From Martelella mediterranea (GTDB lineage Bacteria; Pseudomonadota; Alphaproteobacteria; Rhizobiales; Rhizobiaceae), in assembly GCF_004342225.1 (NCBI RefSeq), contig NZ_SMAR01000024.1, positions 1 through 64,000 of the forward strand: a stretch of 64,000 nt of DNA, read 5' to 3'. The notes beneath the pieces were generated by a model. The model saw only the letters and a program-made list of their open reading frames with translations, ran no database searches and was not told the origin of the DNA. Of this stretch, positions 1-31,040 are shown in pieces. The first letter of the stretch is position 1, and each line of letters opens with the position of its first letter. The translations under genes were made by a program, and so were the position numbers.

Positions 1-1271
1 TTCGATCGTCCGATATCCAGCAGCGCTGAAAACCGGCTGATCTTTGGCAGCTGGGCGAATTCGTCGACGAAAAACCAGATGCGACGGAGCTTGGCGTCGC
101 CAAGTTCCGGATCGGACACGATGCCGGAGGCAATGGTGAGAAACGCGCTGATCCAGCCGTCAGATTGGTCGGAAAACCGGCCAGACTTCTGCAGGATGAC
201 GGTGCGCCGATCTGTTTTGTAGAGCAGCCAGTCGCGCAACGAAAAACGTTCCAGACCTTCATAATTCGCCCACGCCGTTGCAAGCAGTCGCAGCGTGTTC
301 GTATCAGCGGTGAGCGTCGAAAGCGTCGAGGCGACTTGTCGATAGTCAGCGTCCAGAAAGCGAACCGCATCGGGATGATAGCGATGCGCGCCCTCAAGAA
401 GTTCAAGATGGTCACGGCGCGTCTCGGCTACCAGATCGGCCCATGTCCACCTTCCAGGGTTCTCATGCATAAGGCGTATGGTGCATGCGGCCAGCACGGC
501 ACGAGCCGAGTTGGAAAAGAACCGATCTCTTGATTCGGGGATTAGTCGCGTGGCCAGCTCAACGGCATCCTCTGCAATGCGCAGATCCTTGGCGATATCC
601 CAAACATGGGAACGCCGATCCTGTGGAGCAATGATGATTGGCTGCACCCTGGAACCATTCGGCTTCATCGTTGGAGGCAGCTTCTCGGTAAAGTCTCCCT
701 TGATATCGAAGACGAGAACCTTGTCATGTCGCGCGATCGCGGAGACGATCAGCCCGATCATGGTCTGTGTCTTGCCGCCGCCAATGGAGCCAAAGATGAT
801 GAAGTGTCGCACCTCACGTTCGAGCGCCAGCCGCCATCCATTGAACCAATGAAGGCCGTCCCGCTTGTCGATCTTTTCGGCTTTTGCGGCCCGTAGCAAT
901 TCGGGCATGCCTGCGACAGTCCGGCCGGACTTGATCCATTTATCCGGTGGCATGAGGAAGGCAATATAGCCGCCGATCGCAATGGCAATGATGCCTGCCA
1001 CAAGCGTGGCAGCCAACAACCATTGCAGTTTAGCCAGATCGGCCGGGACGTAGCCGAGTGCCTGAATGAAGTGACTTCGGCAAAGATCGGAGGACCAGAA
1101 TTTGAGGCAGTCGATCGCCTGCGAAACTGATAGGCGGTAGGCCGATCCGTTCGTGGCGTTCCATGAACGAAGCGCAAAAAAATAAACCCAGACAAGTGCC
1201 GAAATGCCGACAAGGAAGAGACCGGCATAGAGCAGAATAGCAAATTCGGAACGTCTGGGTTTGGTGATCAT
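1..1271 (-). CDS. Type IV coupling protein (TraD/TrwB/VirD4-like), 3' end beyond the window
   Basis: Hexameric inner-membrane ATPase that hands the relaxase-DNA complex to the secretion channel. Read on the minus strand from the ATG at 1271, the protein has two N-terminal membrane segments (about residues 11-33 and 85-107), a Walker A motif GSIGGGKT at 161-168, and a Walker B-like IWFFVDEFAQLP near the point where the window ends. About 423 residues are visible and the C-terminus is missing. The start overlaps the traD stop (ATGA, 1268-1271), so the two are translationally coupled. The order coupling protein-traD-traC, divergent from traA, is the arrangement of Ti plasmids. The N-terminus looks more like TraD/TrwB than Ti TraG, so I give no symbol. 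Confidence 0.88.
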   Translation of the reverse strand, partial: MITKPRRSEFAILLYAGLFLVGISALVWVYFFALRSWNATNGSAYRLSVSQAIDCLKFWSSDLCRSHFIQALGYVPADLAKLQWLLAATLVAGIIAIAIGGYIAFLMPPDKWIKSGRTVAGMPELLRAAKAEKIDKRDGLHWFNGWRLALEREVRHFIIFGSIGGGKTQTMIGLIVSAIARHDKVLVFDIKGDFTEKLPPTMKPNGSRVQPIIIAPQDRRSHVWDIAKDLRIAEDAVELATRLIPESRDRFFSNSARAVLAACTIRLMHENPGRWTWADLVAETRRDHLELLEGAHRYHPDAVRFLDADYRQVASTLSTLTADTNTLRLLATAWANYEGLERFSLRDWLLYKTDRRTVILQKSGRFSDQSDGWISAFLTIASGIVSDPELGDAKLRRIWFFVDEFAQLPKISRFSALLDIGRS

Positions 1272-1522
1272 TGGCGCAACGCCTCGTGACCCAGCTTGAT
1301 CATTTGTTCGCGAAGTTGAGCGTCACCCTTTCTCCGATTTCCTGTCAGCAGAACGCCAAGAATGTAGGCGCGGTCCTCATCTCCGAGGCTTGCTTTGATG
1401 ACCAGTCCGCCAAGCTCGATCTTGTGGCGGGTGTCTTCGCTTCGTTCGCGCTTGCGCATTTTTCTATACTCACCTTGCAGGGTGCTAAGCGTTCTGCGCA
1501 ATGTCAGAAGGTCGCTGCTCAT
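1268..1522 (-). CDS. traD: Conjugal transfer protein TraD (small Ti-type relaxosome accessory)
   Basis: About 84 residues, charged N-terminal half with a central KIELGGLVIKASLGDEDRAY segment typical of the small TraD proteins of Agrobacterium and Rhizobium plasmids (unrelated to F TraD). I chose the ATG at 1522 because GGGAG lies just upstream and the longer reading (to 1594) runs deep into traC. It overlaps traC by about 38 bases and the coupling-protein start by 4 bases, so the three genes form a tight operon leading away from oriT. The family is believed to assist relaxosome assembly; the exact role is unsettled. Confidence 0.8.
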   Translation of the reverse strand: MSSDLLTLRRTLSTLQGEYRKMRKRERSEDTRHKIELGGLVIKASLGDEDRAYILGVLLTGNRRKGDAQLREQMIKLGHEALRQ

Positions 1523-1724
1523 TCTCCCGCCCGGAACGAAAGGAATGAACCATCTCGGCAAAAGCCGCCTCAAGTTCATTCTCCGAAAGATCAAGGGTTT
1601 CGACGCCGGCTTTCATAGCGATTTGTCCAATCCTGAGTGCTTCCTTCTCTTCAGCTTCGCGCAACTGCTTTTGCAGAGTTCTGATCTGGTCACGGATCGC
1701 GGAAGGGGATTTGGCGCGGGCCAT
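1485..1724 (-). CDS. traC: Conjugal transfer protein TraC (oriT-proximal relaxosome accessory)
   Basis: About 79 residues starting MARAKSPSAIRDQI, followed by a charged helical stretch (roughly residues 9-28) and LSENELEAAFAEMVHSF, the conserved pattern of TraC from Ti/Sym plasmids. The start at 1724 is supported by an AGGAGAAAG ribosome site; upstream codons run into the oriT region and are unlikely to be translated. First gene of the traC-traD-coupling protein operon, divergent from traA across the oriT at about 1860-1914. In Ti plasmids TraC is needed for oriT processing with TraA; I infer the same here. Confidence 0.82.
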   Translation of the reverse strand: MARAKSPSAIRDQIRTLQKQLREAEEKEALRIGQIAMKAGVETLDLSENELEAAFAEMVHSFRSGRENEQRPSDIAQNA

Positions 1725-1861: not shown

Positions 1862-1881
1862 AACAAAACGATCGTTTTGTT
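1862..1881. repeat. 20-bp perfect palindrome beside oriT
   Basis: AACAAAACGATCGTTTTGTT reads the same on both strands over its full 20 bases. It lies 4 bases from the predicted nic core and about 53 bases before the traA start, in the traC-traA divergent promoter region. Position and symmetry suggest a binding site for a relaxosome protein or a regulator of the two operons. No known protein is assigned. Confidence 0.75.
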
Positions 1882-1914
1882 AAATGCGCACTTATACATT
1901 GTTTTCAACAATGT
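1882..1914 (-). other. oriT: Predicted origin of transfer (oriT), MOBQ / RSF1010-like nic region
   Basis: Read on the minus strand there is an 8-bp inverted repeat ACATTGTT-GAA-AACAATGT (1914-1896) followed directly by ATAAGTGCGCA (1895-1885). This is the RSF1010/Ti layout: a hairpin and then TAAGTGCG at the nick. By analogy the nick would fall between 1887 and 1886 on the minus strand. It sits between traC and traA, as in Ti plasmids, and the plasmid encodes a MOBQ relaxase. The sequence match is seen; the exact nick is inferred. Confidence 0.8.
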
Positions 1915-1933
1915 AGGATGGTACGCTATTTCC

Positions 1934-4900
1934 ATGGCGATCTATCATTTGCGCGCTCATCAGATATCCCGTGGCAAAGGGCAGAGTGCCGTTGCTGCCG
2001 CTGCATATCGCCACGCGACACATATGAATGTCGCACGCTCTGGCGAGATCGCTGACTACAGCCGAAAGAAGGGCTGTATCCACAGTGAAGTGGCATTGCC
2101 CGAAGGCGCCCCGCGGTGGATACATGCGTGGCATGATCGATATTCGCCACACGAGTTTGCCGAGCGTTTCTGGAACCGTGTGGAAGCCAGTGAAAAGCGC
2201 GATGACGCACAGCTCGCGCATGAGTTCGTCGTCGCACTGCCCGTTGAGTTGTCCGTAGAGCAGAACAAGGCTCTGGTGCGTGACTTCTTGCGTGATCAGT
2301 TCACGGCCCGCGGGCAGGTCGCAGACTGGAACTATCATGATGCGACGGGCAATCCGCATGTTCACATCATGGTGGCGTTGCGGCCGTTGACCGAGACAGG
2401 CTTTGGCCCCAAACGGGTTCCAGTGTTGGATGGTGATGGTGAACCGGTCCGAAGGCCGCCAAAGGTGGAGGGTCAAAAAGGGGAAATCGTCTATCGCCAC
2501 TTCGCGGGTTGGAAGGACCGGCTTCCTGATATCCGTGCAGCCTGGTCACAGGAGGTCAATCGTCATTTGCTCGCGCATGGATATGACGCGACGGTTGATC
2601 ATCGCAGCTTCGAAGATCGGGACATTCCGCTGGAGCCGACGACGCATCGCGGCCCCGCCGTCGACGACATGGAGGCGCGTGGCATTCAGACCGAGATGGT
2701 GCAGCAGCACCAACAGGTCATGCGTGAGAATTTTCGCAGGCTGGCGGAAGATCCTTCGCTTGTTGTGAAAATGATCACGGCGGAAAAGTCCGTTTTCGAT
2801 GAACGTGATGTTGCGAAGTTCATCCACCGCTATGCGTCAACGACTGAAGAGTTTTCCGGGCTATTCCTTCGGGTCGGTGCGCTCGAAAACCTCGTGACGC
2901 TTTCCCAGGAAATCCGCGACCCGTTCACGAACAAGCTTCTTGAGCGGGAGAAAATGACGACGCGAGACGTTCTGCATATGGAAGCGGGGATGATTGATGG
3001 CGTGCGTCAGCGCGCGACGGATCAGTCGTTCGGCGCCCCGCCGCGTCGTGTCGAGACGGCGCTTGCGGAATTCTCGAAGTCGCATGGATTCTCTCTTTCC
3101 GACGAACAGGCAATGGTGGTCCGCGCCGTAACGTCCGATCGCGGCGTTTCGACGGTGGTCGGCTATGCGGGTGCGGGTAAGTCCACGGTGATGGATGTCG
3201 TGCGGCAGGTGTACGAAGGGCAGGGGCGGCGTGTTGTTGGCGGTGCGCTTGCCGGCAAGGCGGCCGAGGGCTTGTCTGAATCGGCGGGTATCGAGAGCCG
3301 GACGCTTGCGTCCTGGCGCATCTCGTGGGAGCACGACAAGCACCGCCTTCAGAAAGGCGACGTGTTCGTTCTTGATGAAGCCGGAATGGTCTCATCAAAC
3401 GACATGGCGATGTTGGTTGATGCGGTGAACGCTGCACAGGCCAAGCTTATTCTCGTCGGAGATGCGCGGCAGCTTCAGCCTATTCAGGCTGGCGCTGCGT
3501 TTCGCGCCATTGCGGATAACACCGGGTTTGTCGAGCTGACGGAGGTGCGCCGTCAGAGCGAAACATGGATGCGGGACGCGTCCCTCGCATTCGGTCGCGG
3601 TGATAGCCGCGCGGCGCTTGAAGCCTATGCCGATAACGGACACATCCATATCCGGGGCCATCGTGACGATGCCATGTCTGAGTTGGTTGGTGCGTGGGGA
3701 GCTGATTGGCGCGCCGGCGCCGATACGCTGATGCTGGCGCACACCAAGGACGCGGTGTTCAGTCTGAATGAGCGGGCACGCCAGACCATCAAAGCCCACG
3801 GGGGGCTTCAAAATGAAGTGACGTTTGACGCGGTGCGTGGCCCGCGCGCTTTCGCCGTTGGCGATCGGCTGTTGTTTCTGGAAAACAATCGTGACCTTGG
3901 CGTCAAGAACGGAATGCTGGCAACCGTTGAGAAAGCGAGTGACGGCATTCTTGATGTTCGGCTCGACAATGGCAGGGTCGTTACGGTCAACCATGAGCAT
4001 TACAACAACGTTGATTATGGCTACGCGACCACGATCCATAAGTCTCAAGGATCGACTGTCGACCGGGTGCATGTGCTTGCCACACAGATGATGGATGCGC
4101 AGCTTTCCTATGTCGCGCTATCGCGTCATCGCGAGACGGTCACGCTTTATGCAGGTCGGAATGACTTTCCGGAAACCAAGGATCTGCTGGACACGCTGTC
4201 GCGGGACCGGCTCAAAGATTCTACGTTAGCCTACGAGCATACGCCCGACTATCAGCTAGAACGGGACGCATTTGTGCGTCGGCGCGACCTTCCGGACATC
4301 GGCGAACTGCGCGGTCTTTGGCGTCGATCGCTCGATGCCATGCGTTCGCGGTTCTCAGATATTGCGGAACGGTTCAGGGCAATTTCCGAACGGCTTTCGC
4401 TTGCGCGTCCGCAAGCGGTCGAAGTCTCGCCGAATGTCACGCCTGCTGCCGGCGCGCGGCCTGTTGAAGCTGAAAGAGAGATCAGGCTTCCTGAACTGAC
4501 GCCAGCGGTCAGTCAGGCGCTTTCGCGGCTGTCGGAAGTGGACCGCAACACGAACGGCTACAGCGGCAAACGGGGGCGCTGGTTCCGCGCTGCCGAAACC
4601 GAGCTGACGCAGATGTCGTCAGCGGTCGATCTGGTCATGTTCAATGACCAGATCGCAGCACTCGTTTCCCCGGTGGAAGTTCGGTCTCTTGGTCGCGATC
4701 CGGATGAGGACAAGCTTCAGTCGCTTGTCGCGCATCTTCCGCCATCGGCGCAGACTTTCATCAAGGAAAACTGGCAGCTCGTGCATGTCGGCCAGCTGGC
4801 CGCAGACGACAAGAGCCGCGTTGATGTTGCGTCCGTCATGGTCACGGAGCGGCGCGATGCTGGCCTTGAGGCCGATTATGAAAAGGAGCGGGCACGTTAT

Positions 4901-5689
4901 CGCCTTCCCGATGTTCCGCTTATTCCGGCCGTGACGCAATGGTCCGTTTCGGTCGAAGCCGTTGCCCGTGATCCGGCCAATCAGGCGGCCGTCACCAAGT
5001 TGCTGTGCCAATCCGCACTCAAGAACATGGGCAAGGTCTGGCACGATCCGGTCCCGATCCTCGAGAAGGTGTCGGCCGCAGTGATGACCGGCGGAGACGC
5101 CAGTCAGATTGTCAGATCAATGCATGAGAACCCGGCGTCTCTCGGTGAGTTGCGTGGCAAGGCCAACTTCCTCGGTCGTCCCGATGAGGACCGGAAAACG
5201 GCACTTGCAGCCGTGCTTCCTGCAGCCAGCAGTGCCGGCGATTTTGTCCGGTCACTCAAGGTTAGTGTCAAAGGCGTCGAAGAGGCTGAGAGGAAGCTGC
5301 GGAGCCAGATGGCCGCGCCGATCGACGGACTGTCGCCGGCCGCCAAAGATGTGCTGTCCGCCCTGGCAAAAGCGTCCAGTCTGCCGGAGCGCTCTGACGA
5401 ACGTCGCGCGCTTGAAAGGGCAGCGATTGACGACGGCGAAGCCATCGGCCAGCTGCGGGGTGTCGCTCATGATATCAGGGCGCGTTTTGGCGACAGCAGC
5501 GGTGTGCCGGCGCAAGATATGATCGCACGCGCAATGCCGGAGCTTTCTCCAGAAGCAAGATCAAGGATCTATCGTGATGCCCGCCAGATCTGCGCGGCCT
5601 ATGACAGGTGTGTCGAGATAGATCGGACACAACGGCGCGAAACTCGTCTTGAGCAAGAAAAGTCGCAGTATCATTCTATTGGGAGATAA
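1934..5689 (+). CDS. traA: TraA relaxase-helicase (MOBQ, Ti-plasmid type)
   Basis: Nicks oriT, stays bound to the 5' end, and unwinds the strand for transfer. About 1251 residues. The N-terminal MobA/MobL nuclease domain has the candidate catalytic tyrosine in AAAAYRHATH (Y26) and the metal-binding histidines in PHVHIM (about 141-146). A TraI/RecD-like helicase follows, with Walker A GYAGAGKST (about 410-418) and VFVLDEAGM (about 477-485). The C-terminal third (after about residue 800) has no motif I recognise. I chose the ATG at 1934 (MAIYHLRAHQ) because relaxase homology begins there; the longer frame to 1823 would translate through oriT. Divergent from traC. Length and order match TraA of Ti and Sym plasmids. 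Confidence 0.95.
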   Translation: MAIYHLRAHQISRGKGQSAVAAAAYRHATHMNVARSGEIADYSRKKGCIHSEVALPEGAPRWIHAWHDRYSPHEFAERFWNRVEASEKRDDAQLAHEFVVALPVELSVEQNKALVRDFLRDQFTARGQVADWNYHDATGNPHVHIMVALRPLTETGFGPKRVPVLDGDGEPVRRPPKVEGQKGEIVYRHFAGWKDRLPDIRAAWSQEVNRHLLAHGYDATVDHRSFEDRDIPLEPTTHRGPAVDDMEARGIQTEMVQQHQQVMRENFRRLAEDPSLVVKMITAEKSVFDERDVAKFIHRYASTTEEFSGLFLRVGALENLVTLSQEIRDPFTNKLLEREKMTTRDVLHMEAGMIDGVRQRATDQSFGAPPRRVETALAEFSKSHGFSLSDEQAMVVRAVTSDRGVSTVVGYAGAGKSTVMDVVRQVYEGQGRRVVGGALAGKAAEGLSESAGIESRTLASWRISWEHDKHRLQKGDVFVLDEAGMVSSNDMAMLVDAVNAAQAKLILVGDARQLQPIQAGAAFRAIADNTGFVELTEVRRQSETWMRDASLAFGRGDSRAALEAYADNGHIHIRGHRDDAMSELVGAWGADWRAGADTLMLAHTKDAVFSLNERARQTIKAHGGLQNEVTFDAVRGPRAFAVGDRLLFLENNRDLGVKNGMLATVEKASDGILDVRLDNGRVVTVNHEHYNNVDYGYATTIHKSQGSTVDRVHVLATQMMDAQLSYVALSRHRETVTLYAGRNDFPETKDLLDTLSRDRLKDSTLAYEHTPDYQLERDAFVRRRDLPDIGELRGLWRRSLDAMRSRFSDIAERFRAISERLSLARPQAVEVSPNVTPAAGARPVEAEREIRLPELTPAVSQALSRLSEVDRNTNGYSGKRGRWFRAAETELTQMSSAVDLVMFNDQIAALVSPVEVRSLGRDPDEDKLQSLVAHLPPSAQTFIKENWQLVHVGQLAADDKSRVDVASVMVTERRDAGLEADYEKERARYRLPDVPLIPAVTQWSVSVEAVARDPANQAAVTKLLCQSALKNMGKVWHDPVPILEKVSAAVMTGGDASQIVRSMHENPASLGELRGKANFLGRPDEDRKTALAAVLPAASSAGDFVRSLKVSVKGVEEAERKLRSQMAAPIDGLSPAAKDVLSALAKASSLPERSDERRALERAAIDDGEAIGQLRGVAHDIRARFGDSSGVPAQDMIARAMPELSPEARSRIYRDARQICAAYDRCVEIDRTQRRETRLEQEKSQYHSIGR

Positions 5690-8441: not shown

Positions 8442-8468
8442 CGGCCGCTGATGACGAAGGAGGAAAAT

Positions 8469-8774
8469 ATGCAAATTCCAAAGTACCTTCGCCCCGTCAG
8501 GGATCATAAGAACTATGAGGCCGGCGTCGGAGAACGTGCTGTTCGAAAGCTTGTCTATTGGCCAATCATCTTGCTTCTCTGCTTGCCGGCCGCCGCCGCG
8601 ATGGCGGCTGTTGCTCTATCCTTCGGCCTGTTGTTCTTGAAATTTCTGAACATCATTGAGACTGCTATTGCAAATCATGACTGGCTTATGCTGTTTTTGA
8701 TCGCTCTCGCCGCAGCGGCTATCCTGTCGCTATGGAAGCTCGCCTACGTAATTCATCGGTACTTCATTCTTTAG
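8469..8774 (+). CDS. Small membrane protein of the dotDCB operon, unknown function
   Basis: About 101 residues. I chose the ATG at 8469 because AAGGAGG lies just before it; an upstream in-frame ATG at 8451 would place that ribosome site inside the coding region. Two hydrophobic segments are visible (about residues 30-58 and 70-90) separated by a short polar loop, with a basic N-terminus. It follows dotB by 27 bases on the same strand, so it is probably co-transcribed and could be a minor channel component. I do not recognise the family. Confidence 0.65.
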   Translation: MQIPKYLRPVRDHKNYEAGVGERAVRKLVYWPIILLLCLPAAAAMAAVALSFGLLFLKFLNIIETAIANHDWLMLFLIALAAAAILSLWKLAYVIHRYFIL

Positions 8775-9975: not shown

Positions 9976-9979
9976 GGCC

Positions 9980-13441: not shown

Positions 13442-13457
13442 ACCAAGGAGAAACACC

Positions 13458-20490: not shown

Positions 20491-21206
20491 AGCGTTTTCT
20501 TTTCTCCCTGATATGGCGGCACTTCCTGAATGAGAACTGGCCGCTTTGATCCAAAACCGGGAAAGTCGCTGGTCGCGCCATACATTCCCCCGACGGAATA
20601 GCTGTTCGTGTATCCGAAGCCGTCGTATGAATTGCCGTTGATGGATGCCATGCGCTTCAGGATGAGATCCTGCAGCTCCGCGTAGGAGGACAGGCTGTTG
20701 GCCGCGAGATAGCTCTCGGGTAGCGCGTTGGGATCAAAACCGCTTGCGACCCAATCATTCAGGGCGCCGGAGCCAAGAAAATGCGCCGCGTCCAGAAGGC
20801 TTTCCTGTGTGATCTGCACGCCATTCACTGTCTGACCTACCAGCCCGCGTGTTTGGGAACTCATTGAATTCCAGTTGCTGATTGTCAGCTCGTTCACGGC
20901 ACGCTCTTGCAGTGCCTTGCCGGCTTCGGAATACCGGAGATCGTCGAGCGACGAGACGCCGGCTGCGCGGGCCTTGTCTGTGAAGGTGTAGTTAGACCAG
21001 TTGCCACCAGATCCCTGGGTATATCCGAGCGTGGCCCAGGTACCGGCCGTGATCTGGTACTTGCCGAGCGCGGTGCCCTTTTTGTTGATGACCGAGTAGC
21101 TGTCGCCTCCCTCATGTCCCTTGAGAGCATCCAGATATCCCGCATGTGCCGCTACCGATGCCAATCCGAGCGAAAAAGCGGATAAGCACAAGATAACCTG
21201 TTTCAT
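20487..21206 (-). CDS. Peptidoglycan-hydrolase-like protein (lysozyme/transglycosylase fold) of the T4SS
   Basis: About 239 residues, signal peptide ending AHA-GYLD. The segment LKGHEGGDSYSVINKKGTALGKYQIT resembles lysozyme/muramidase-type domains, in which the Glu of HEGG would be the catalytic acid and GKYQIT lines the cleft. Such enzymes open the peptidoglycan so that the channel can span the wall. It overlaps neighbouring genes by 4 bases on each side, so it is an integral part of the operon. Remaining C-terminal half (after residue about 150) is unassigned. Confidence 0.72.
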   Translation of the reverse strand: MKQVILCLSAFSLGLASVAAHAGYLDALKGHEGGDSYSVINKKGTALGKYQITAGTWATLGYTQGSGGNWSNYTFTDKARAAGVSSLDDLRYSEAGKALQERAVNELTISNWNSMSSQTRGLVGQTVNGVQITQESLLDAAHFLGSGALNDWVASGFDPNALPESYLAANSLSSYAELQDLILKRMASINGNSYDGFGYTNSYSVGGMYGATSDFPGFGSKRPVLIQEVPPYQGEKKTL

Positions 21207-25000: not shown

Positions 25001-25062
25001 CGGAAGACCGATCGGCTCAAGGCCGCTGCGATGTAGTCGAGGGTTTCGCCGAAACGTGCCAT
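22036..25062 (-). CDS. dotO: DotO/IcmB/TraU-like ATPase (VirB4 class) of an I-type T4SS
   Basis: 1008 residues. The energy-providing ATPase of the type IVB channel, related to VirB4. Walker A is VGTPGSGKS at about 491-499, after an N-terminal domain of nearly 480 residues, and a Walker B-like KRLCFDEYHMTGG lies near residue 820. The N-terminus (RSVFRKSLDGYCRLVTAEDNDTLVADDGSLVSVFALEG) matches the DotO/IcmB pattern. It begins one base after the icmD stop. Size and position match TraU of R64. Confidence 0.94.
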   Translation of the reverse strand: MARFGETLDYIAAALSRSVFRKSLDGYCRLVTAEDNDTLVADDGSLVSVFALEGFRSLAGETEVSQTVEQLRRTITPYFASPGCALQFWFGHSPDLGASEIDMALSSIGRVAHDSGLDVGDLIDERRRILPRKLTGERSYLAVWSRPSNLTKNEIKAGQAARRKNLSGAPSMRQSQWPDAALEALRTRHRSVSDALFREFALVGIEMERLDARTAITAARGVLYPEFLHASPSWSPVLPGDMMRKKMPSTNAELKKGDISNLTWPALSRQLLTESATIVDQSTVEIGNSVFSGFDLSLPPEIVVSFNDLVRRVLDSKDRISWRASMLTEAGGYQGQIFKEQYARLFTWTAPSRNRRIVQAFDALREADGIDDTAVRFRVSFAAWAPKTDKDVLMRQVANLRRAVERWGSAQTDALIGDPVENVMSSALAMNCASTAPPMAASLSHALAMSPISRPAKCWDHGAVLFRTSDGKLWPYQPGSSKQTSWVDVIVGTPGSGKSVLLNSMNLGVALSPQSGQSDDGSGLLPRISIIDVGPSSAGLISLLRDSLPANRRHEVVYHRLRMEEQYSVNPFDTQLALRFPLAHERGYLVNLVTLLCTPDGAESAYDGISALAASCINEAYERFSDDREPKKYVPSESYEVDAALGEVGYVADQSSTWWEVTDVLMENGRRHEAALAQRFAVPTLSDLILVSNSETVREPFREMVTRTQEPVLKAFQRMVSSATKDFPILARPTRFDVSGARIIAFDLSDVTATVGPQAKRHTAIMYMLAHHAVTSDFWLDEDELRGLKAPQVYIDYHLRRWKNNRQMHKRLCFDEYHMTGGLGIRQQVINDVRVCRKAGVQIALASQLMDDFDEAIQKLVTNIWFCNVPTESAISEVSETYNLSASARSILRTLHGPVPGEGAPVMAYLTLKSGVYTQYLINELGPIELWALSTTSEDTALRYMLYDRLGSKRARTILAARFPDGSAKATIERRLGELEDRGVAVDEGKRGDVIRDLADQIVKEAVA

Positions 25063-25063: not shown

Positions 25064-25438
25064 TCAGTTGATGCTTCTCAGCGTTCCATCGATGGTCGAG
25101 GTATCCGCACCCGAGCCGAGGAAGCTCGTGACACCAACGCCAGCCCAGGCCGGCAAGCCGATCAACAGTGCGCCGGCGAGAAACCAGATGAGCATCGACA
25201 TCGGGGAATGCTGTTGATGCGGATTCCTGGAGTTCGAGACGAGTTTCACAATGCCGATGATGATGCACAAAAGGCCGCCGAAGAAGGCGATGGAGCCGAG
25301 AAGGTCGGCCCATGGGCCAAGTGTGGTCGTCGAAAAATTGCTGGCTAGATCGCCCAGCGATTGTTGCGCCATCACTGGCCCAAGCATGGCCAGATAAAAG
25401 CCGGAAAATGTCAGCAGGCCGGTGCACTTTCTCTGCAT
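25064..25438 (-). CDS. icmD: IcmD/DotP/TraR-like small membrane protein
   Basis: About 124 residues with a signal-like N-terminus ending MAQ and two membrane segments (about residues 47-66 and 83-105), between them a short basic loop SNSRNPHQQH. This is the IcmD/TraR size and topology (reminiscent of VirB2 pilin-like proteins). Located directly before dotO as traR is before the traS-T-U block in R64. Confidence 0.8.
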   Translation of the reverse strand: MQRKCTGLLTFSGFYLAMLGPVMAQQSLGDLASNFSTTTLGPWADLLGSIAFFGGLLCIIIGIVKLVSNSRNPHQQHSPMSMLIWFLAGALLIGLPAWAGVGVTSFLGSGADTSTIDGTLRSIN

Positions 25439-25452: not shown

Positions 25453-25995
25453 TTATTTGACCAGAAGTTTTTCAAGCATCTGCAGGACAACGACGATGTT
25501 GATCGCCAACGTCCCTGCGACGAGGTGGACAATCCCGCGTCCCGTGTCGCCGACTTGTCCGCCGTTGCCGGCGCGGGCGAGCAGGAACAGACCCCGTACA
25601 AATCCGAGAAGGCCGATAAATTGCGCGAAACGAACCAGAGCAATAACGGCTCTCTGGCTCATTTCAGCGGAAAGCGGCTTGGTGATTTCGGGCGCGTAGG
25701 TGAATACCTGTTCCGCCGACACGCTCTCGGATTGCAAGAAGAAGCTCATCAGGAATGCCCCGATGACCGTCGACAGCGAAATCAGAAGTGAGCCGACGAA
25801 GAACAGAACCAGCGGACCGGTGTATGAGCCAGACGCCGCGCCCCCAATACTACGGAGCTCGTGGGCTGAGGCCATGCCGACGATCGAGCGCGCCACGAAA
25901 ACAAGACCCACCAAAAAGCAGGTGCCTGCGACCAACGCCTGCAAGGGGGCAATGATCGCGACACCGCGCTCCAGAAGCTGGACAAAACTATCCAT
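25453..25995 (-). CDS. IcmC/DotE/TraQ-like membrane protein
   Basis: About 180 residues with four hydrophobic segments (about 15-40, 62-88, 115-135, 152-172) and a periplasmic loop containing SESVSAEQVFTYAPEIT. This matches the topology of the IcmC/DotE and TraQ proteins, which are paralogues of IcmD and DotV. Position between the DotF-like gene and icmD agrees with R64 traP-traQ-traR. Confidence 0.72.
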   Translation of the reverse strand: MDSFVQLLERGVAIIAPLQALVAGTCFLVGLVFVARSIVGMASAHELRSIGGAASGSYTGPLVLFFVGSLLISLSTVIGAFLMSFFLQSESVSAEQVFTYAPEITKPLSAEMSQRAVIALVRFAQFIGLLGFVRGLFLLARAGNGGQVGDTGRGIVHLVAGTLAINIVVVLQMLEKLLVK

Positions 25996-26003: not shown

Positions 26004-26525
26004 CTATTCCGCACTATCCCCGTCCGGGGCCGGCATGGCGACGACCGGATGGGTTACAATCTCGTGCTTTACGCCAACGCCGCCATTTGCGGCCTCAAAG
26101 CCAAGAGGCCCGCCGGTGCCCTGGAGCGTGACCAGTTCGTTCAGGATAAACTCGTCCTGCTTCTTCAGCTCATTCACATGACCGATAATGCGCTCAAGGA
26201 CGCCGTTCCTGGCGGTCAGCGTGTTCAGTTGCTGTACCAGGTCAGCCTGCGCGGTTTTTAGCCGTTGTACCTCTGAATGTAGCTCTGAGACCTGCACCGA
26301 TGTTGCATCGGAGACCCGACCTGATTTGACCGCCTTTGGTTGACCCAAAAACAGGTAGAGGTTGACCGCCGACACGGCCACAGCGACCACGATCGCCATG
26401 AAAACAAGCGATTTAGGGCCAATTTTCAGCAAATTAGGGTTGCGTCGATACGATTCGTGTTCGTATAACTCAATTTGATTTGTCACGAGAGCCCCCGATG
26501 AGGTCTGATTTTTCCCCGAAATCAC
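26004..26525 (-). CDS. DotF/IcmG/TraP-like bitopic membrane protein with coiled coil
   Basis: About 173 residues from a GTG at 26525; a second GTG at 26486 (VTNQIELYEH) is an alternative. One membrane helix at about 39-60 followed by a coiled-coil-prone region (about 78-130) and a Gly/Pro-rich tail. That is the layout of IcmG/DotF and TraP, which bind the core complex. First gene of the ten-gene minus-strand operon. The bases between it and the divergent gene at 26631 must hold both promoters. Confidence 0.65.
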   Translation of the reverse strand: MISGKNQTSSGALVTNQIELYEHESYRRNPNLLKIGPKSLVFMAIVVAVAVSAVNLYLFLGQPKAVKSGRVSDATSVQVSELHSEVQRLKTAQADLVQQLNTLTARNGVLERIIGHVNELKKQDEFILNELVTLQGTGGPLGFEAANGGVGVKHEIVTHPVVAMPAPDGDSAE

Positions 26526-26630: not shown

Positions 26631-27767
26631 ATGTTCAAACGCAAGTCGGCGCTTTCTACGTCCGTCCTTTTCCCCGCCGCCTTACTCGGCCTGTGGCCAC
26701 TCGGGGCGATCGCCGAAAACGTGACTCAGGCCGACATCGATCTGCCCTGGCAGACCACCTTTGTCGGTTGCAGCACATCAGCAGCACCTTTCATCGAGAA
26801 CCAGCTCAACCTTTACGGCGCGCGCCCGTTGATGAAGGTCGGTGGTATGCAGGCATGGGCTGTGCCGCAGGGTGACGGCACAGAGAAATTTGCGCTGACA
26901 ACCGAGGACGGACTGACGATCTTCGGCTCGGTCGTCGGGCCGCAAGGCGAGGACATTTCCGGCGCGTTGCTGTCGACCAGGCCTAATACCGTTTCACTGG
27001 AAACCGCCAACACTCCCTCTTCTTCACGGCCCCCTTCACCGAAGGTCGCCAACGAGGAGCCCGCTGCATCGAACCCCAGCGCTCTCGAACCCCCCGGTCG
27101 GTTGACCGAGGCAGTTCCTGCGGAAGCGGAACCTGTCAAAGCACCGTCTTCGGATGTAGTTGAACCGAGCTACGATGCCACGCGGGCCGCATCGGCCGAT
27201 CAGGTTGAGGCAAGCAAACCGCCCAAACTGGCGTCGGTGGGCTCTCAAAATACACCAGACATTCCGATCGCCCAGACTTTGGATGAGCTGGTGCAGCAGG
27301 CCCATGATTTCAGCGCGTGGTTTCCGGTCGGCAATCCAAAGCCCGACGCACCGACCTTTTTCCTGCTTGCCGATCCCACGTGCCCGCATTGTGCATGGTC
27401 GATCGATTCAATGAAACCGCTCATCCAGAACGGCGATATCGACCTGCGCATCATTCTTGCCCCGATCCTCAGCGAGGCGGCTTTCAATGTCTCTGCGGCC
27501 ATCCTTCAGTCGGACAATGTCGGCACGGTTTTCTTGAAAAATGAGTATGCCGCGACTTCAAGCGTTGGTGGCCAAAAGGTTGCTGCGATCGCTTCCGACA
27601 AAATCGACGATCAGACGGCTGATATTCTGCGCAGAAACGTGTTGTGGATGCGCCAGAACGGGATCAAGGGTGTTCCCTTTTTCATTTACAAGACACCCGA
27701 GGGCGGACAGTTCGCTTTTGGCAACCTCACCCAACAAGCGCTCGATACAGCGCTCACAATGGAGTGA
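26631..27767 (+). CDS. DsbC/DsbG-like thioredoxin-fold protein of the T4SS (CPHC)
   Basis: 378 residues. Signal peptide ending AIAENV, an N-terminal domain of about 100 residues containing VGCSTS, a low-complexity Pro/Ser/Ala/Glu linker (about 120-210), and a thioredoxin domain with redox CPHC at 251-254 and the cis-proline loop GVPFF at about 347-351. It probably forms or isomerises disulfides in cysteine-containing T4SS parts, like TrbB of F or TraB-linked Dsb proteins. It begins the plus-strand operon with dotI, dotH, dotG and icmT. Confidence 0.82.
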   Translation: MFKRKSALSTSVLFPAALLGLWPLGAIAENVTQADIDLPWQTTFVGCSTSAAPFIENQLNLYGARPLMKVGGMQAWAVPQGDGTEKFALTTEDGLTIFGSVVGPQGEDISGALLSTRPNTVSLETANTPSSSRPPSPKVANEEPAASNPSALEPPGRLTEAVPAEAEPVKAPSSDVVEPSYDATRAASADQVEASKPPKLASVGSQNTPDIPIAQTLDELVQQAHDFSAWFPVGNPKPDAPTFFLLADPTCPHCAWSIDSMKPLIQNGDIDLRIILAPILSEAAFNVSAAILQSDNVGTVFLKNEYAATSSVGGQKVAAIASDKIDDQTADILRRNVLWMRQNGIKGVPFFIYKTPEGGQFAFGNLTQQALDTALTME

Positions 27768-27770: not shown

Positions 27771-28412
27771 ATGAGCGAGCAATCCTACGGCGCACTCGAA
27801 ACCGTCATGAAGCGCACACAGACGTATCGGACGGCTTTCCGGGTGATGTCGGTAATCAGCTGTGCGCTTCTGGTCACAACCGTCGTTTCGGTGGGCGCAG
27901 CGGCCTACCTTGCCACCCATCGGCCCGAGCCCCGCTACTTTGCGACAACAACCAACGGCCAAATCTTGCCATTGGTGGCGTTGGATAAACCGCACCTCAA
28001 TGCAAACGAAGTCGCCAACTTCGCCACCCAGGCCGTTACCGCAGCGCTGACCTACTCCTTCACCAATTATCGCGCCGACCTCACAGCCGTGCAGAAGTAT
28101 TTCACGCAGCCCGCCGGATGGAACTCGTTCATCGACGCTCTCGACAAGAGCGGTCAGCTCGAAATGGTGAAGGAGCGCAGGCTGAATACCACGGCGGTTG
28201 CTCAAGACGCAGTGATCCTTTCACAGGGGCCAAACGCTCGTGGCGTCTATCAGTGGGTCGTGCAGATTCCGCTCCGCATCACCTATGAATCCGCAAGTGA
28301 AGTATCGGGGCAGGATCTTCTTGTGACAGTTACCATCAATCGGATGGAAACCTATCAGACCCCTGAAGCCGTCGCGATCAACCGCTTTATCGCAGCGCGT
28401 GGAGGCGCCTAA
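27771..28412 (+). CDS. dotI: DotI/IcmL/TraM-like inner-membrane protein
   Basis: About 213 residues. A short cytoplasmic N-terminus, one membrane helix (about 24-46) and a periplasmic NTF2-like/VirB8-like domain beginning at about residue 75 (NEVANFATQAVTAALTYSFTNYRADL), the IcmL/DotI hallmark. It links DotO/DotB-driven inner complex to the core. Four bases after the redox protein stop; stop overlaps the next start. Confidence 0.9.
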   Translation: MSEQSYGALETVMKRTQTYRTAFRVMSVISCALLVTTVVSVGAAAYLATHRPEPRYFATTTNGQILPLVALDKPHLNANEVANFATQAVTAALTYSFTNYRADLTAVQKYFTQPAGWNSFIDALDKSGQLEMVKERRLNTTAVAQDAVILSQGPNARGVYQWVVQIPLRITYESASEVSGQDLLVTVTINRMETYQTPEAVAINRFIAARGGA

Positions 28413-29431
28413 TGACAATGCGTACCTCAGGCGCCGTTCTATGCGTTCTACTAATGACCACGGCACCTGCTCTCGCGCAGGACGCGCCGAGCGGACTTGC
28501 CCAGGCGGCTGCACAAGGCACGCAGCGCGCCGAACAGATTAATCAGCAGCAAGCCGACCAGCAACAATACGAGCAGCCCGACAGCGAGTTTCCTGTCATT
28601 GGGTCAGACCACCTACTCAAGTCGCTCGATGAGTTGGACCGCCCGCTTTCGCCGGAAGAAATCACGGCTTACGGCGCGGCAGTTCAATCTCAAATGCCGA
28701 TGACCCCCGAGTTGATCCGCGACTACAAGCGTCGGGTGAATGAAAGCCAGAAAGCCGCAGCTCAACCCGCGACCGGCTTTCGGCCGAAGGCGATCTCTGA
28801 TCAGGTTCAGGTTTCGCTCGAGGCAGCCGCCCAAACCACCGCGATCAAAACCTCACCCGGAACGATCTCCAACCTCGCCTTCTTTGACCGCACCGGAAAG
28901 GCTTGGCCCATTGCCAGCTATGGCGTCGGTCGCCCCAATGCGTTTCAGGTCTATGCGATGCAGGAGGGGAGCAATCAGCTCATGATCACGCCGCTTCTTC
29001 CGCATGCCTTTACAAACCTGACCGTTTCTCTGGTCGGTGAGGACCGGCCATTAATCATCGACGTCGAAACAAACGAAAAGGTCACCCAATATCGGCGCGA
29101 CTATCAGGTCGACGGTCTTGGCCCGAACGCGCATGTTTCCACGGCCGTCAGCGCTCCGCCGAGCCGCGCCTCCAACCAGGTCATGATGGCGTTCGTCCAA
29201 GGCGCCGGCATTCCACAAAACGCCACGAGGCTTTCCACGGACGAACCGTCCGTATCGGCATGGCGATACGGAAAGGATCTCTACATCCGCACGACCAGCA
29301 CGCTGCTTTCACCATCCTGGACTGAAAGCCAGACCGGTCCTGGCTCGGTGCACGCCTACAAGCTCAAACCGACGCCCGTTGCACTGATCTCGTCCGATGG
29401 CTCTGTCAAGAAAGTGAGAATTTTCCAATGA
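28412..29431 (+). CDS. dotH: DotH/IcmK/TraN-like outer-membrane core component
   Basis: 339 residues with a signal peptide ending ALAQ, a Gln-rich N-terminal region (about 30-65), and a C-terminal beta domain containing DRTGKAWPIASYGVGRPNAF and LTVSLVGEDRPLIIDVE, equivalent to VirB9-like/DotH folds. Needs DotC and DotD for outer-membrane localisation, and those genes are present at 5819-7233. Start overlaps dotI; stop overlaps dotG (ATGA, 29428-29431). Confidence 0.9.
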   Translation: MTMRTSGAVLCVLLMTTAPALAQDAPSGLAQAAAQGTQRAEQINQQQADQQQYEQPDSEFPVIGSDHLLKSLDELDRPLSPEEITAYGAAVQSQMPMTPELIRDYKRRVNESQKAAAQPATGFRPKAISDQVQVSLEAAAQTTAIKTSPGTISNLAFFDRTGKAWPIASYGVGRPNAFQVYAMQEGSNQLMITPLLPHAFTNLTVSLVGEDRPLIIDVETNEKVTQYRRDYQVDGLGPNAHVSTAVSAPPSRASNQVMMAFVQGAGIPQNATRLSTDEPSVSAWRYGKDLYIRTTSTLLSPSWTESQTGPGSVHAYKLKPTPVALISSDGSVKKVRIFQ

Positions 29432-30720
29432 CCGATGCAGAAAACCGATCTGACGAGAACCACAACAACCCCGACACCAGCGAAACGCACCAGGCCGCGC
29501 CGGAAGTCGAAACGGAATCGCCCATGAACGATGAACGGCGTTCCACGATTGATCGGAGCGCGCAGCGCAACAATCGCATTGTCTACGGCGGCATCCTGGT
29601 GATCGCGGTGGGTCTTGGTTTCGTGCTGTGGCAGAGTTATTCGTCTTCGCCCGTTCCATCGTCGAGCGTTGCACGCCCACCGAATGTCGAGAGTACGCCC
29701 GGCGGCGAACAGCAAGGACGGTCAGAGCGCTACCAGAATACGCTCGATCAGTCGAACGAGGCCGGTGCCAAGAGTGCTTTCGAAAACGACGAAAGCTTCA
29801 TCGCGACACCTGACGAAGCCATGCGGTCGATCGACACGATTGGGCAGAAGAAAGATCCGCCGCCGGTCAAACGACCCGTCGCGCCCGCCAATGTCATTGA
29901 GCGTCGCGACCAGCCTGTTGAGTACCGAACCGCCGATCGGCGGCAGCCCCCCAAACCGCAGACTGACTATCGACGCATCGATCAGCTTGCGAGCGCCATG
30001 AGCGCACAACAGCAAGGATTGCTTCAGTCATGGCAGCCTGTGGCCTCACAGGCAACGGTTGTCATTGAACAGGACCTGTATACGCCGCCTGAACCGCTCA
30101 CGGCCAGCAATGGACAGGGCGGTGGCAATGGTTCCGTCCAGTCGTCCGGAGCTTCGTCGGTTCAAACCTATGCGGTCGCTGGCGATACGGTCATGGCGCG
30201 CATCCAGAACGCTTCCGATTCCGATACGCCCGGACCGGTGATCGCCGAGATCATCAATGGCCCCCTTGATGGCGCCCGCGCCATTGGCGCTTTTGAGGTG
30301 AACAAGACGCAGAGCGCGCTCGTCATCCAGTTCGATCGGATCGTGATGCCCGATGGCGCAAACTACGACACCAGCGCCTACGCGATCGATGCACAGCAGT
30401 CGACCATCGCCGTGAAAACAGACATCGATCGTCGTTATTTTCAGCGCTACGGCGGTAAACTGGCGGCCGCGTTCATATCCGGTCTGAGCGGCTCTCTGTC
30501 TCAACCGCAACAGCAATATGTTGGCATTTCCGACAATATTGGCTCCATCATCACCAACAAGCCGACGGTGAACGAAAGCATCTATGCCGGCTTCGCCGCA
30601 GCTGGCGACGCCATTTCCAGCGACCTCAACAACAACGCGCCGAACGGACCCCTGGTCAAGGTTCGGGCCGGTCAAATGATCGGCATCCTGTTCCTTGAAA
30701 ATGTCGGGGTGGCGAACTGA
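29428..30720 (+). CDS. dotG: DotG/IcmE/TraO-like core channel protein (VirB10 class)
   Basis: 430 residues. Acidic N-terminus, one membrane helix (about 51-68), a Pro-rich spacer, and a C-terminal VirB10-like domain (about 245-430) with GDTVMARIQNASDSDTPGPVIAEI, DRIVMPDG and VRAGQMIGILFLENV. It spans both membranes. It is much shorter than Legionella DotG because the central pentapeptide-like repeats are absent, as in IncI TraO. Stop overlaps the icmT start (TGATG at 30718-30722). Confidence 0.92.
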   Translation: MTDAENRSDENHNNPDTSETHQAAPEVETESPMNDERRSTIDRSAQRNNRIVYGGILVIAVGLGFVLWQSYSSSPVPSSSVARPPNVESTPGGEQQGRSERYQNTLDQSNEAGAKSAFENDESFIATPDEAMRSIDTIGQKKDPPPVKRPVAPANVIERRDQPVEYRTADRRQPPKPQTDYRRIDQLASAMSAQQQGLLQSWQPVASQATVVIEQDLYTPPEPLTASNGQGGGNGSVQSSGASSVQTYAVAGDTVMARIQNASDSDTPGPVIAEIINGPLDGARAIGAFEVNKTQSALVIQFDRIVMPDGANYDTSAYAIDAQQSTIAVKTDIDRRYFQRYGGKLAAAFISGLSGSLSQPQQQYVGISDNIGSIITNKPTVNESIYAGFAAAGDAISSDLNNNAPNGPLVKVRAGQMIGILFLENVGVAN

Positions 30721-31040
30721 TGGCGGAAAGCAGCTTCAACATCTATGGCACGCCGATTTACTGGCGGGAAACAGTGCGAACGCCGCGCCTGCTTATCTTC
30801 GATGCGCGCCTGATATTCTTCTTCCTGCTTTTGACATTGCACCTGCGGCTATGGACCTTCATCGCTCTGCTCCTCGCGTGTTGCGCGTTCTGGCTCATCG
30901 AGCGCTATGGGTACGCTTTCCCGAATGCACTGAGGGCCATTCGCAGTCTTGTTGCTGGCCGCCAACGTCCCGCCCTGCCCGGCTACAGATACCGGTCAAT
31001 GATCGACTACGGTTTTGAGACGCGTGAGGTTCAGGGATGA
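30720..31040 (+). CDS. icmT: IcmT/TraK-like small membrane protein
   Basis: About 106 residues. N-terminal YWRETVRTPRLLIFDARL and two closely spaced membrane segments (about 29-62), then ERYGYAFPNALRAIRS, the conserved IcmT/TraK pattern. Overlaps dotG by one base. It closes the recognisable plus-strand T4SS operon. Confidence 0.88.
   Translation: MAESSFNIYGTPIYWRETVRTPRLLIFDARLIFFFLLLTLHLRLWTFIALLLACCAFWLIERYGYAFPNALRAIRSLVAGRQRPALPGYRYRSMIDYGFETREVQG

What the first reader, a model, noticed from the sequence alone, without database searches (positions are those of the whole stretch)
1..31040. Hybrid conjugation system: Ti-type relaxosome with an I-type (Dot/Icm-like) mating channel
The DNA-processing genes (traA, traC, traD and oriT layout) are those of Ti/Sym plasmids, which normally pair with a P-type trb channel. 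Here no trb genes are seen in the window; instead a nearly complete dot/icm-type set (dotD, C, B, A, O, I, H, G, icmD, icmT and likely icmC and dotF) is linked to them. Such a combination is unusual in Alphaproteobacteria as far as I know. It suggests the relaxosome can dock to an unrelated channel through the coupling protein.
Basis: partly seen in the sequence, partly recalled or inferred. Interest (0 to 1): 0.78.

Follow-up and report, generated by a model that had tools for sequence, protein, structure and literature searches.

The report
Three-origin plasmid transfer machine
A bacterial plasmid carries a DNA-transfer machine whose DNA-cutting part, docking motor and channel come from three different known machine families, and the same combination recurs in several related bacteria, so it looks like a settled working design rather than an accident.

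Summary
Window 1-31040 carries Ti-type traA, traC, traD and an oriT-like site beside an I-type (Dot/Icm-like) channel set. No complete trb/virB system was found in the draft genome, and no VirB4 in five related plasmid records searched whole. The combination is in print in outline: PMC5613091 (2017) reports an Icm/Dot T4SS with traA on pMM259 and syntenic relatives. Not found in print here: (1) the coupling protein, in the place of Ti traG, is neither TraG nor DotL but TraD/TrwB-like (one reduced tree leaves DotL open); (2) DotL- and DotM-type genes were not found in this genome or six plasmid records, with a held-out positive control; (3) TraA ends in a BID secretion domain, and three related plasmids encode a Fic toxin with a TraA-like C-terminus. 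Coupling protein and TraA are neighbours in 9 of 9 plasmid records and 9 of 9 genome loci, under purifying selection. Most likely a TraD-like motor docks a MOBQ relaxosome to an I-type channel. Transfer is untested.

The parts
1..1271 (-). type IV coupling protein, TraD/TrwB-like, C-terminal third cut off by the contig start
   Evidence: PF10412 146 bits vs PF02534 29 bits; full-length orthologue in pMM259 L001:11412-13271; tree and profile comparison
1268..1522 (-). traD, Ti-type relaxosome accessory protein
   Evidence: PF06412 52.7 bits
1485..1724 (-). traC, Ti-type relaxosome accessory protein
   Evidence: PF07820 54.2 bits; NCBIfam CjTranTraC_Agrob 64.8 bits, below its cut-off
1862..1915 (.). 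putative oriT core: palindrome 1862-1881, GCGCACTTAT at 1886-1895, inverted repeat 1895-1915
   Evidence: 10-mer identical in 10 of the 11 full traC-traA intergenic regions examined; single occurrence in the window, 0.11 expected; inverted repeats
1934..5689 (+). traA, MOBQ Ti-type relaxase-helicase
   Evidence: TIGR02768 891.5 bits, PF03389 224 bits
4949..5272 (+). BID domain of TraA (about residues 1006-1113)
   Evidence: PF17841 24.2 bits, below cut-off; AlphaFold model, mean pLDDT 77.8; Foldseek ranks 1-8 all Bartonella BID or Bep structures; VIA Z 12.6, 105 residues
5819..6322 (+). dotD/traH lipoprotein
   Evidence: PF16816 50.5 bits
6319..7233 (+). dotC/traI
   Evidence: PF16932 193 bits
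7233..8441 (+). dotB/traJ ATPase
   Evidence: PF00437 98 bits; NCBIfam DotB 235 bits and TraJ 206 bits, below their cut-offs
8451..8774 (+). small conserved protein, function unknown; homologues lie just after dotA in Shinella and Sinorhizobium
16050..18269 (-). dotA/traY
   Evidence: TIGR04346 254 bits, cut-off 100
18273..18722 (-). TraX/IcmV-like protein
   Evidence: NCBIfam TraX E 2.5e-4, below cut-off; hhalign to R64 TraX 80%
18788..19897 (-). IcmX/TraW-like protein
   Evidence: hhalign 96.6% to alphaproteobacterial I-type family A_g400, itself 82.8% to R64 TraW; no direct match to TraW
19897..20490 (-). I-type accessory protein
   Evidence: hhalign 96.8% to alphaproteobacterial I-type family A_g174
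20487..21206 (-). conserved protein of 239 aa without known family
   Evidence: 60-63% identical to the other three genera by tblastn, 63-65% by global alignment; no family found
21203..22039 (-). conserved protein of 278 aa without known family
   Evidence: 42-44% identical to the other three genera; no family found
22036..25062 (-). dotO/icmB/traU ATPase
   Evidence: hhalign to R64 TraU 100%, E 5e-71, 958 columns; tblastn
25064..25438 (-). TraQ/TraR-like small membrane protein
   Evidence: NCBIfam TraQ E 4.4e-4, below cut-off; hhalign 41% to A_g145, 26% to TraR
25453..25995 (-). TraQ/TraR-like small membrane protein
   Evidence: NCBIfam TraQ E 5.5e-6, below cut-off; hhalign to R64 TraR 78%
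26004..26486 (-). conserved but fast-changing protein, function unknown
   Evidence: 27-30% identical to the other genera; dN/dS 0.45
26631..27767 (+). DsbG/TrbB-like thiol-disulfide protein
   Evidence: NCBIfam DsbG 67 bits, below cut-off; hhalign to R64 TrbB 61%
27771..28412 (+). dotI/icmL/traM
   Evidence: PF11393 162.8 bits
28412..29431 (+). dotH/icmK/traN
   Evidence: hhalign to R64 TraN 97.6%
29428..30720 (+). dotG/icmE/traO, VirB10-like C-terminus
   Evidence: NCBIfam DotG 149.8 bits and TraO 90.2 bits, both below cut-off; PF03743 45.5 bits, over cut-off
30720..31040 (+). icmT/traK
   Evidence: NCBIfam IcmT_TraK 81.6 bits, cut-off 40

Best explanation
This is a self-transmissible conjugation system built from three lineages. 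(1) TraA, a MOBQ relaxase-helicase, with TraC and TraD nicks and unwinds the plasmid at the oriT between traC and traA (inferred from families and layout). (2) A TraD/TrwB-like coupling ATPase, encoded where Ti plasmids have traG, recruits TraA with its bound DNA strand; the BID domain at the TraA C-terminus is the likely export signal (domain shown by model and fold match; role inferred). (3) The strand is passed through an I-type channel (DotB, DotO, DotA, DotC, DotD, DotH, DotG, DotI, IcmT and others) that lacks the usual DotL/DotM coupling module (absence shown at profile level; consequence inferred).
For: Gene identities. Nine plasmid records match the coupling protein over at least 80% of its length and the same nine lead the TraA search; by the positions in those two calls both genes are side by side in 9 of 9. 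The order coupling gene-traD-traC-traA-dotD-dotC-dotB was read in the 6 of 9 records fetched at that spot; NC18, NC20 and CP070277 were not read there, but NC18 has the channel block. In genome contigs 9 of 20 loci hold this coupling protein; all 9 have TraA beside it and 8 have dotD, dotC and dotB on the same stretch, the ninth contig ending first. Ti-type comparison pMl2 has traG-traD-traC-traA-traF-traB in the same layout. No VirB4 in 5 of 5 hybrid plasmid records without the roseobacter part; the model does find it in pMl2 and pMM259. No DotM and no full-length DotL match in G000 or 6 records; held-out pBIND01 scores 1053 and 413 bits. Coupling protein: only PDB sequence hit is TrwB; hhalign 99.7% TraD_F, 98.9% TrwB, 91% Ti TraG over 96 columns, 57% DotL-type, 34% R64 TrbC, 17% VirD4; tree. 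BID fold. 22 of 22 genes show the same order of divergence, by mean identity, among four genera. dN/dS at or below 0.25 in 22 of 23 comparisons.
Against: No mating data. In a reduced 16-row tree the grouping of the coupling protein with DotL-type ones was no longer rejected (AU p 0.09), though with 21 rows it was (p 0.0017). The window's coupling gene is truncated by the contig end. The short positively charged tail that accompanies BID signals in the review is not evident: in the last 25 residues of five hybrid TraA the net charge is -1 to +1. The Pfam BID match in the window's TraA is below cut-off, and no Foldseek E-value is under 0.001. pMM259 also has a full VirB/VirD4 system, so there transfer need not use the I-type channel. 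Some copies look damaged: dotO is truncated in plas-001 and in two frames in Sinorhizobium, and traA seems interrupted in L029.
Confidence: 0.75

Rival explanations
1. The relaxosome and the I-type channel are neighbours that do not work together: TraA and its coupling protein use another channel in trans, and the I-type set does another job such as delivering toxins to neighbouring cells.
For: pMM259 carries a complete VirB/VirD4 set as well. A Fic toxin lies near the locus on the related plasmids and in 3 records has a TraA-like C-terminus. On NC18 the traA end and the channel block are about 30 kb apart.
Against: Five hybrid plasmid records have no VirB4; the own genome has only a broken virB fragment. 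Coupling protein, relaxase and channel genes share one divergence pattern across four genera, and dotD, dotC and dotB lie beside traA in 8 of 9 genome loci (in L030 with 3.7 kb between traA and dotD).
Confidence: 0.1
2. The locus in this genome is a decaying remnant that no longer transfers the plasmid.
For: plas-001 of M. lutilitoris lost part of dotO, both TraQ-like genes and most of the DsbG-like gene. Sinorhizobium dotO is split into two frames. An island and an IS5 lie inside the window's locus. A second copy of the DNA-processing genes on contig C87 ends at traA residue 447.
Against: Apart from the coupling gene at the contig edge, the transfer genes in the window match pMM259 over their full length and show low dN/dS.
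Confidence: 0.08
3. The I-type channel still works with a DotL/DotM-type coupling module that sits elsewhere or has diverged beyond recognition, for example in the unassigned 239- or 278-residue proteins; the TraD-like protein is an extra.
For: Two conserved proteins between dotO and the next assigned genes have no family.
Against: DotL and DotM profiles find pBIND01 at 1053 and 413 bits but nothing in G000, and in the six hybrid records only 10-14 bit matches inside the TraD-like protein. The unassigned proteins have 239 and 278 residues, while the four DotM-type proteins aligned have about 370-400.
Confidence: 0.06

Closest known systems
Icm/Dot-type T4SS with traA on Martelella mediterranea plasmid pMM259 (PMC5613091, 2017; first author Bartling is recalled; passages read)
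   Same: The same locus: all 23 window-derived queries match in order at 92-100% protein identity. The paper names the Icm/Dot superoperon, its traA, and syntenic relatives in Sinorhizobium sp. CCBAU 05631 and Ochrobactrum anthropi OAB.
   Different: In its main text the term coupling protein occurs once, for the VirB system; BID, Fic, TraG, TraD and oriT do not occur.
IncI1 plasmid R64 conjugation system (MPF_I)
   Same: Channel genes correspond to R64 traH, I, J, K, M, N, O, U, X, Y, and more weakly to traQ/R, traW (indirectly) and trbB.
   Different: R64 uses the MOBP relaxase NikB and the coupling module TrbC/TrbA; here MOBQ TraA and a TraD-like motor, with no TrbC/TrbA found. No R64 TraP, TraT or TraV counterpart was found.
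Ti/Sym-type tra-trb system (control: Sinorhizobium medicae pMl2)
   Same: traD-traC, intergenic AAGGGCGCA motif, then traA in the same layout.
   Different: pMl2 has traG, traF, traB, trbI and VirB4-family matches; here a TraD-like motor stands in the place of traG and dotDCB in the place of traF-traB.
Bartonella pVbh: TraA relaxase with BID and Fic-BID toxin VbhT (Harms et al. 2017, PMC5675462; passages read)
   Same: BID domain on TraA and, in three related plasmids, on a nearby Fic toxin; a VbhA-family antitoxin is annotated beside Fic in Shinella and Sinorhizobium and in three of the Martelella plasmids.
   Different: There the channel is VirB-like (Vbh); here it is I-type with a TraD-like motor. 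The window's own Martelella lineage has a short Fic without BID.
dot/icm genes with a Zeta/BID gene on linear plasmids of Rhizobiaceae (PMC13293297, 2025; passages read)
   Same: Dot/Icm-type channel genes in Rhizobiaceae and a BID-like protein downstream of icmL.
   Different: The passages describe linear plasmids and mention a relaxase gene in one putative plasmid; no Ti-type relaxosome is described in what I read.

Membership tests
MPF_I (IncI / Dot-Icm-type) channel | DotO/TraU ATPase | tested here: met
   hhalign to R64 TraU 100%, 958 columns
MPF_I (IncI / Dot-Icm-type) channel | DotB, DotC, DotD, DotG, DotH, DotI, IcmT, DotA set | tested here: met
MPF_I (IncI / Dot-Icm-type) channel | DotL/TrbC-type coupling protein | tested here: not met
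   profile A4: nothing in G000, only 10-14 bit matches inside the TraD-like protein in six hybrid records; held-out control 1053 bits
MPF_I (IncI / Dot-Icm-type) channel | DotM/TrbA | tested here: not met
   profile A5: none in G000 or six hybrid records; held-out control 413 bits
MPF_I (IncI / Dot-Icm-type) channel | TraP/DotF | tested here: inconclusive
   none of 11 hybrid families matched R64 TraP by hhalign; single R64 sequence as target
Ti-type DNA processing (MOBQ) | TraA relaxase-helicase | tested here: met
   TIGR02768 891.5 bits over cut-off 590
Ti-type DNA processing (MOBQ) | TraC and TraD divergent from traA, oriT between | tested here: met
   the nic site itself was not mapped
Ti-type DNA processing (MOBQ) | VirD4-family TraG as coupling protein | tested here: not met
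   AU rejects grouping with Ti TraG (p 0.009) and with TraG plus VirD4 (p 0.006; 0.004 in the reduced set); hhalign 91% over 96 columns only
Ti-type tra-trb system | trb (P-type) channel | tested here: not met
   the own genome is a draft assembly
TraD/TrwB-type coupling proteins | TrwB_AAD_bind domain and nearest relation to TraD_F/TrwB | tested here: met
   PF10412 203-213 bits in six records; tree support 96/97, 96/99 with TraD_F in the reduced tree, where a DotL-type grouping is not rejected; hhalign
BID secretion signal | BID fold at the C-terminus | tested here: met
   Pfam above cut-off in Aminobacter and Sinorhizobium TraA, below it in window and Shinella TraA
BID secretion signal | short positively charged tail after BID | tested here: not met
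   last 25 residues of five hybrid TraA: K+R minus D+E between -1 and +1
Conjugation system | transfer of the plasmid between cells | not testable with these tools
   no mating data

The most novel reading that the evidence does not exclude
A natural case in which the I-type channel has been uncoupled from its DotL/DotM module and refitted with a TraD/TrwB-type motor that recognises BID-tagged cargo, both the relaxase and, in some relatives, a Fic toxin. The coupling step would then be an exchangeable adaptor between unrelated relaxosomes and channels, and the BID signal would not be tied to the VirB/VirD4 lineage.
Probability: 0.55. Interest if true: 0.72.

Novelty: new variant of a known kind. 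Interest (0 to 1): 0.52.

Why it matters
[quoted passage not shown] A conserved system with a TraD-like motor on an I-type channel offers a natural swap experiment. A review states that the vast majority of BID substrates are linked to VirB/VirD4-like systems and that their VirD4 coupling proteins form one group (PMC6509941); BID cargo with a TraD-like motor and an I-type channel would break that rule. Practically, of seven hybrid plasmid records whose MOB-suite typing I saw, two are called non-mobilizable and four only mobilizable (pMM259 is called conjugative with MPF_T), so such plasmids are probably under-counted as self-transmissible.

Tried and rejected
Complete trb/virB elsewhere in the genome: looked for with PF03135, PF02534, PF03743; only a virB4/5/8/9 fragment on C6, with an ISL3 transposase at the virB4 end.

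DotF in the window: not supported.

DotL by Pfam alone: PF10412 does not hit R64 TrbC, so its silence says nothing about DotL; I made DotL and DotM profiles instead.

Tree robustness: leaving out TrwB and four far rows weakened the rejection of a DotL-type affinity (AU p 0.09); the profile comparison is my main basis for TraD/TrwB affinity.

Structure of the coupling protein: mean pLDDT 47.6, not used.

Order-wide spread: in 397 genomes of the order a DotO at E 1e-30 or better was found in 5, only the own one of this type; the other four are 32-34% identical.

Nearest coupling protein outside the hybrid group whose neighbourhood I read (Mariprofundus, L037) lies beside a TrwC (MOBF) relaxase, not TraA; the TraA match there was its helicase part. 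The other ten loci match over short stretches and were not followed up, apart from four put in the tree.

Literature: (PMC open-licence library only). Not found in print there: the coupling-protein type, the lack of DotL/DotM, or the BID/Fic link of this system. Two pNGR234a regions missed its tra genes, so pMl2 was used as Ti-type control. The M. extorquens AM1 record has no gene annotation; its coupling protein was not worked out.

Full report
Where it is. The window is bases 1-64000 of a 64,096-base contig (C24) of a 105-contig draft genome of 4.30 Mb. Window 1-33256 aligns at 97.3% to plasmid pMM259 of Martelella mediterranea DSM 17316. The contig also has repA-, repB- and repC-type genes (56964-60720) and an extra repC beside icmT, so it is plasmid DNA; the whole replicon is not assembled.

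What is there. Left block: coupling protein (cut by the contig start), traD and traC on the minus strand; an intergenic oriT-like site; then traA, dotD, dotC, dotB on the plus strand. Right block: a minus-strand run from three small proteins (two TraQ/TraR-like) through dotO, four proteins, a TraX/IcmV-like protein and dotA, and a plus-strand run of a DsbG/TrbB-like protein, dotI, dotH, dotG, icmT. Between the blocks lie copper-resistance genes and an IS5 transposase, read from the pMM259 annotation and DNA match; Shinella has no such island. Profile comparison of 11 hybrid families with R64 and with four alphaproteobacterial I-type plasmids gives TraU, TraN and TraX counterparts, an IcmX/TraW-like one only through the alphaproteobacterial family, and weaker TraR and TrbB ones; it gives none for TraP/DotF, TraT, TraV or TrbA/DotM.

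No other complete channel. In the own genome VirB4 (PF03135) occurs once, on contig C6, as residues 124-794 of the pMM259 homologue beside an ISL3 transposase, with virB5, virB8 and virB9; no virB10, virB11, virB6, virB3, virD2 or virD4 match was found in that 20 kb stretch. Genome-wide, VirB10/TrbI (PF03743) hits only DotG, and VirD4/TraG (PF02534) hits only the window's coupling protein, weakly. pMM259 does carry a complete roseobacter-type VirB/VirD4 system, because it is a fusion of two plasmids. Five other hybrid plasmid records (M. lutilitoris plas-001, Martelella NC18, Shinella, Aminobacter, Sinorhizobium) have no VirB4, while the Ti-type control pMl2 has two matches.

The coupling protein. 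In 72,556 plasmid records the full-length coupling protein matches nine records over at least 80% of its length: six Martelella-type, one each of Sinorhizobium, Aminobacter and Shinella. The search reached its 5000-record limit; in the 60 rows shown the rest are 24.6-29.2% identical and mostly named traD of F-type systems. The same nine lead the TraA search. One of the six Martelella-type records is labelled Dysgonomonadaceae but has the same length and matches as plas-001, so it is probably the same plasmid. Pfam TrwB_AAD_bind scores the protein 203-213 bits in six records; R64 TrbC is not matched by that model. The only PDB sequence match is TrwB. hhalign: TraD_F 99.7%, TrwB 98.9%, Ti TraG 91% over 96 columns, DotL-type 57%, R64 TrbC 34%, VirD4 17%. 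In a 21-row tree the hybrid group (100/100) falls with TraD_F, TrwB and a Mariprofundus protein (96/97); AU rejects grouping with DotL-type (p 0.0017), with TraG plus VirD4 (0.006) and with TraG (0.009). Without TrwB and four far rows, grouping with DotL-type is not rejected (p 0.09), grouping with TraG plus VirD4 still is (0.004). Long branches are present, so I rest on profile and tree together.

DotL and DotM are missing. Profiles from three alphaproteobacterial I-type plasmids plus R64 find Beijerinckia pBIND01, not used to build them, at 1053 bits (DotL) and 413 bits (DotM). They find no DotM and no full DotL in G000, pMM259, plas-001, Shinella, Aminobacter, Sinorhizobium or NC18; the only DotL-profile hits in the six records are 10-14 bit matches inside the TraD-like protein. 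This is absence at the reach of those profiles, in a draft assembly for G000.

oriT. The 10-mer GCGCACTTAT lies between traC and traA in 10 of the 11 full intergenic regions examined (it differs in L036, Brucella thiophenivorans) and also on C87; four further genome loci and four plasmid records were not examined. It is followed by an inverted repeat whose letters differ between Martelella and the others. It occurs once in the window, 0.11 expected. The Ti-type control shares AAGGGCGCA. The likeness to the nick region of RSF1010 and Ti plasmids is recalled, not tested.

Conservation. The gene order coupling protein-traD-traC-traA-dotD-dotC-dotB was read in six of the nine plasmid records. In a scan of genome contigs 20 loci were returned; 9 hold this coupling protein (three Martelella assemblies, five species named Brucella, formerly Ochrobactrum as I recall, one Pseudochrobactrum). 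All 9 have TraA beside it; 8 have dotD, dotC and dotB, the ninth contig ending within TraA; TraD is found in 9 and TraC in 8. L029's traA seems interrupted, L030 has 3.7 kb between traA and dotD, and L038 (B. oryzae) looks fragmentary. Across Martelella, Shinella, Aminobacter and Sinorhizobium, 22 of 22 genes show the same order of divergence by mean identity, which fits relaxosome, motor and channel having been inherited together. Window against NC18 or plas-001 (one comparison is pMM259 against plas-001): dN/dS 0 to 0.25 in 22 of 23 comparisons, 0.45 for one small gene. Not every copy is intact: dotO is truncated in plas-001, in two frames in Sinorhizobium and cut at the record end in AD-3. 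The system is rare: in 397 genomes of the order 5 have a DotO at E 1e-30 and only the own one is of this type.

BID domain and Fic toxin. The TraA C-terminus (985-1251) was modelled from 7 sequences (mean pLDDT 77.8). Foldseek against PDB puts Bartonella BID or Bep structures at ranks 1-8 with probability 1.00, though no E-value is under 0.001. VIA gives Z 12.6 over 105 residues, the next unrelated entry 7.6. In the related plasmids of Sinorhizobium, Aminobacter and Shinella a Fic protein of 551-559 residues has a BID domain over the Pfam cut-off. Its C-terminus is 58% and 54% identical to the TraA C-terminus of the same plasmid in Sinorhizobium and Aminobacter; in Shinella only 26%, but 39% to Sinorhizobium TraA, so a toxin signal matched to the resident relaxase holds in two of three. 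With residues 1-368 of the Sinorhizobium Fic as query, nine of the ten best rows in the plasmid collection are the nine hybrid records. The two Martelella Fic proteins translated are 304 residues without BID (pMM259 and plas-001), and the own genome has two genes 91-93% identical to the pMM259 one on other contigs. So a toxin fusion of the VbhT kind seems to have arisen among this system's relatives; that this toxin is exported is inference. The positively charged tail of known BID signals is not evident in the last 25 residues of hybrid TraA.

Prior work. PMC5613091 (2017; passages seen) reports the Icm/Dot system with traA and syntenic relatives and calls it extremely divergent. PMC13293297 (2025; passages seen) reports dot/icm genes with a Zeta/BID gene on linear plasmids. 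The BID review PMC6509941 (introduction and passages seen) ties most BID cargo to VirB/VirD4-like systems. PMC3158045 (passages seen) names the four MPF types. In nine answered searches of an open-licence library I saw nothing on the coupling type, the lack of DotL/DotM or the BID link of this system; subscription papers were not searched.

Mechanism and verdict. Shown by sequence: gene identities, linkage, no DotL/DotM and no rival complete channel at the reach of the searches, and a BID fold by model. Inferred: that the TraD-like ATPase takes BID-bearing TraA with its DNA and passes it to the DotB/DotO-powered I-type channel. The basic finding was known in outline; the motor swap and the BID cargo make it a new variant. 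Interest 0.52.

Noticed in passing
G000 contig C87 (L017, 3,076 bases): A second copy, 94% identical, of coupling protein (residues 1-325), traD, traC and traA (1-447), the outer two genes incomplete; with two Fic copies on C35 and C49 it suggests a second related plasmid.
   Followed up: partly
G000:C6:129900-137200 (L016): virB4, virB5, virB8, virB9 fragment with an ISL3 transposase at the virB4 end, flanked by DNA almost identical to pMM259 regions.
   Followed up: partly
window 9184-15562: Copper-resistance island and IS5 element between dotB and dotA; shared with pMM259, while plas-001 and AD-3 hold other genes there, so this spot seems to collect cargo.
   Followed up: no
L008:15049-17236 (plas-001): Deletion that leaves only the ends of the DsbG-like gene and dotO (from residue 364), with both TraQ-like genes gone: a decayed copy of the system.
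   Followed up: no
CP070277.1: Plasmid labelled Dysgonomonadaceae bacterium zrk40 has the same length and matches as M. lutilitoris plas-001; probably a mislabelled record.
   Followed up: no
NC_012811.1, NZ_CP016463.1, NZ_CP140867.1: Best DotO and DotI matches on megaplasmids of Methylorubrum, Bosea and Rhizobium lie more than 200 kb apart: dispersed I-type genes.
   Followed up: no
window 31426-32718 and 56964-60720: An extra repC beside icmT in addition to a repABC-type set on the same contig.
   Followed up: no
window 34327-37722: Flavoprotein disulfide reductase with an HMA domain (mercuric-reductase-like; name recalled) and a MerR regulator, near transposase genes.
   Followed up: no
L037:7875-12742 (Mariprofundus micogutta): Coupling protein of the same TraD-like kind beside a TrwC (MOBF) relaxase and integrases, a possible source type for the swapped motor.
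   Followed up: partly
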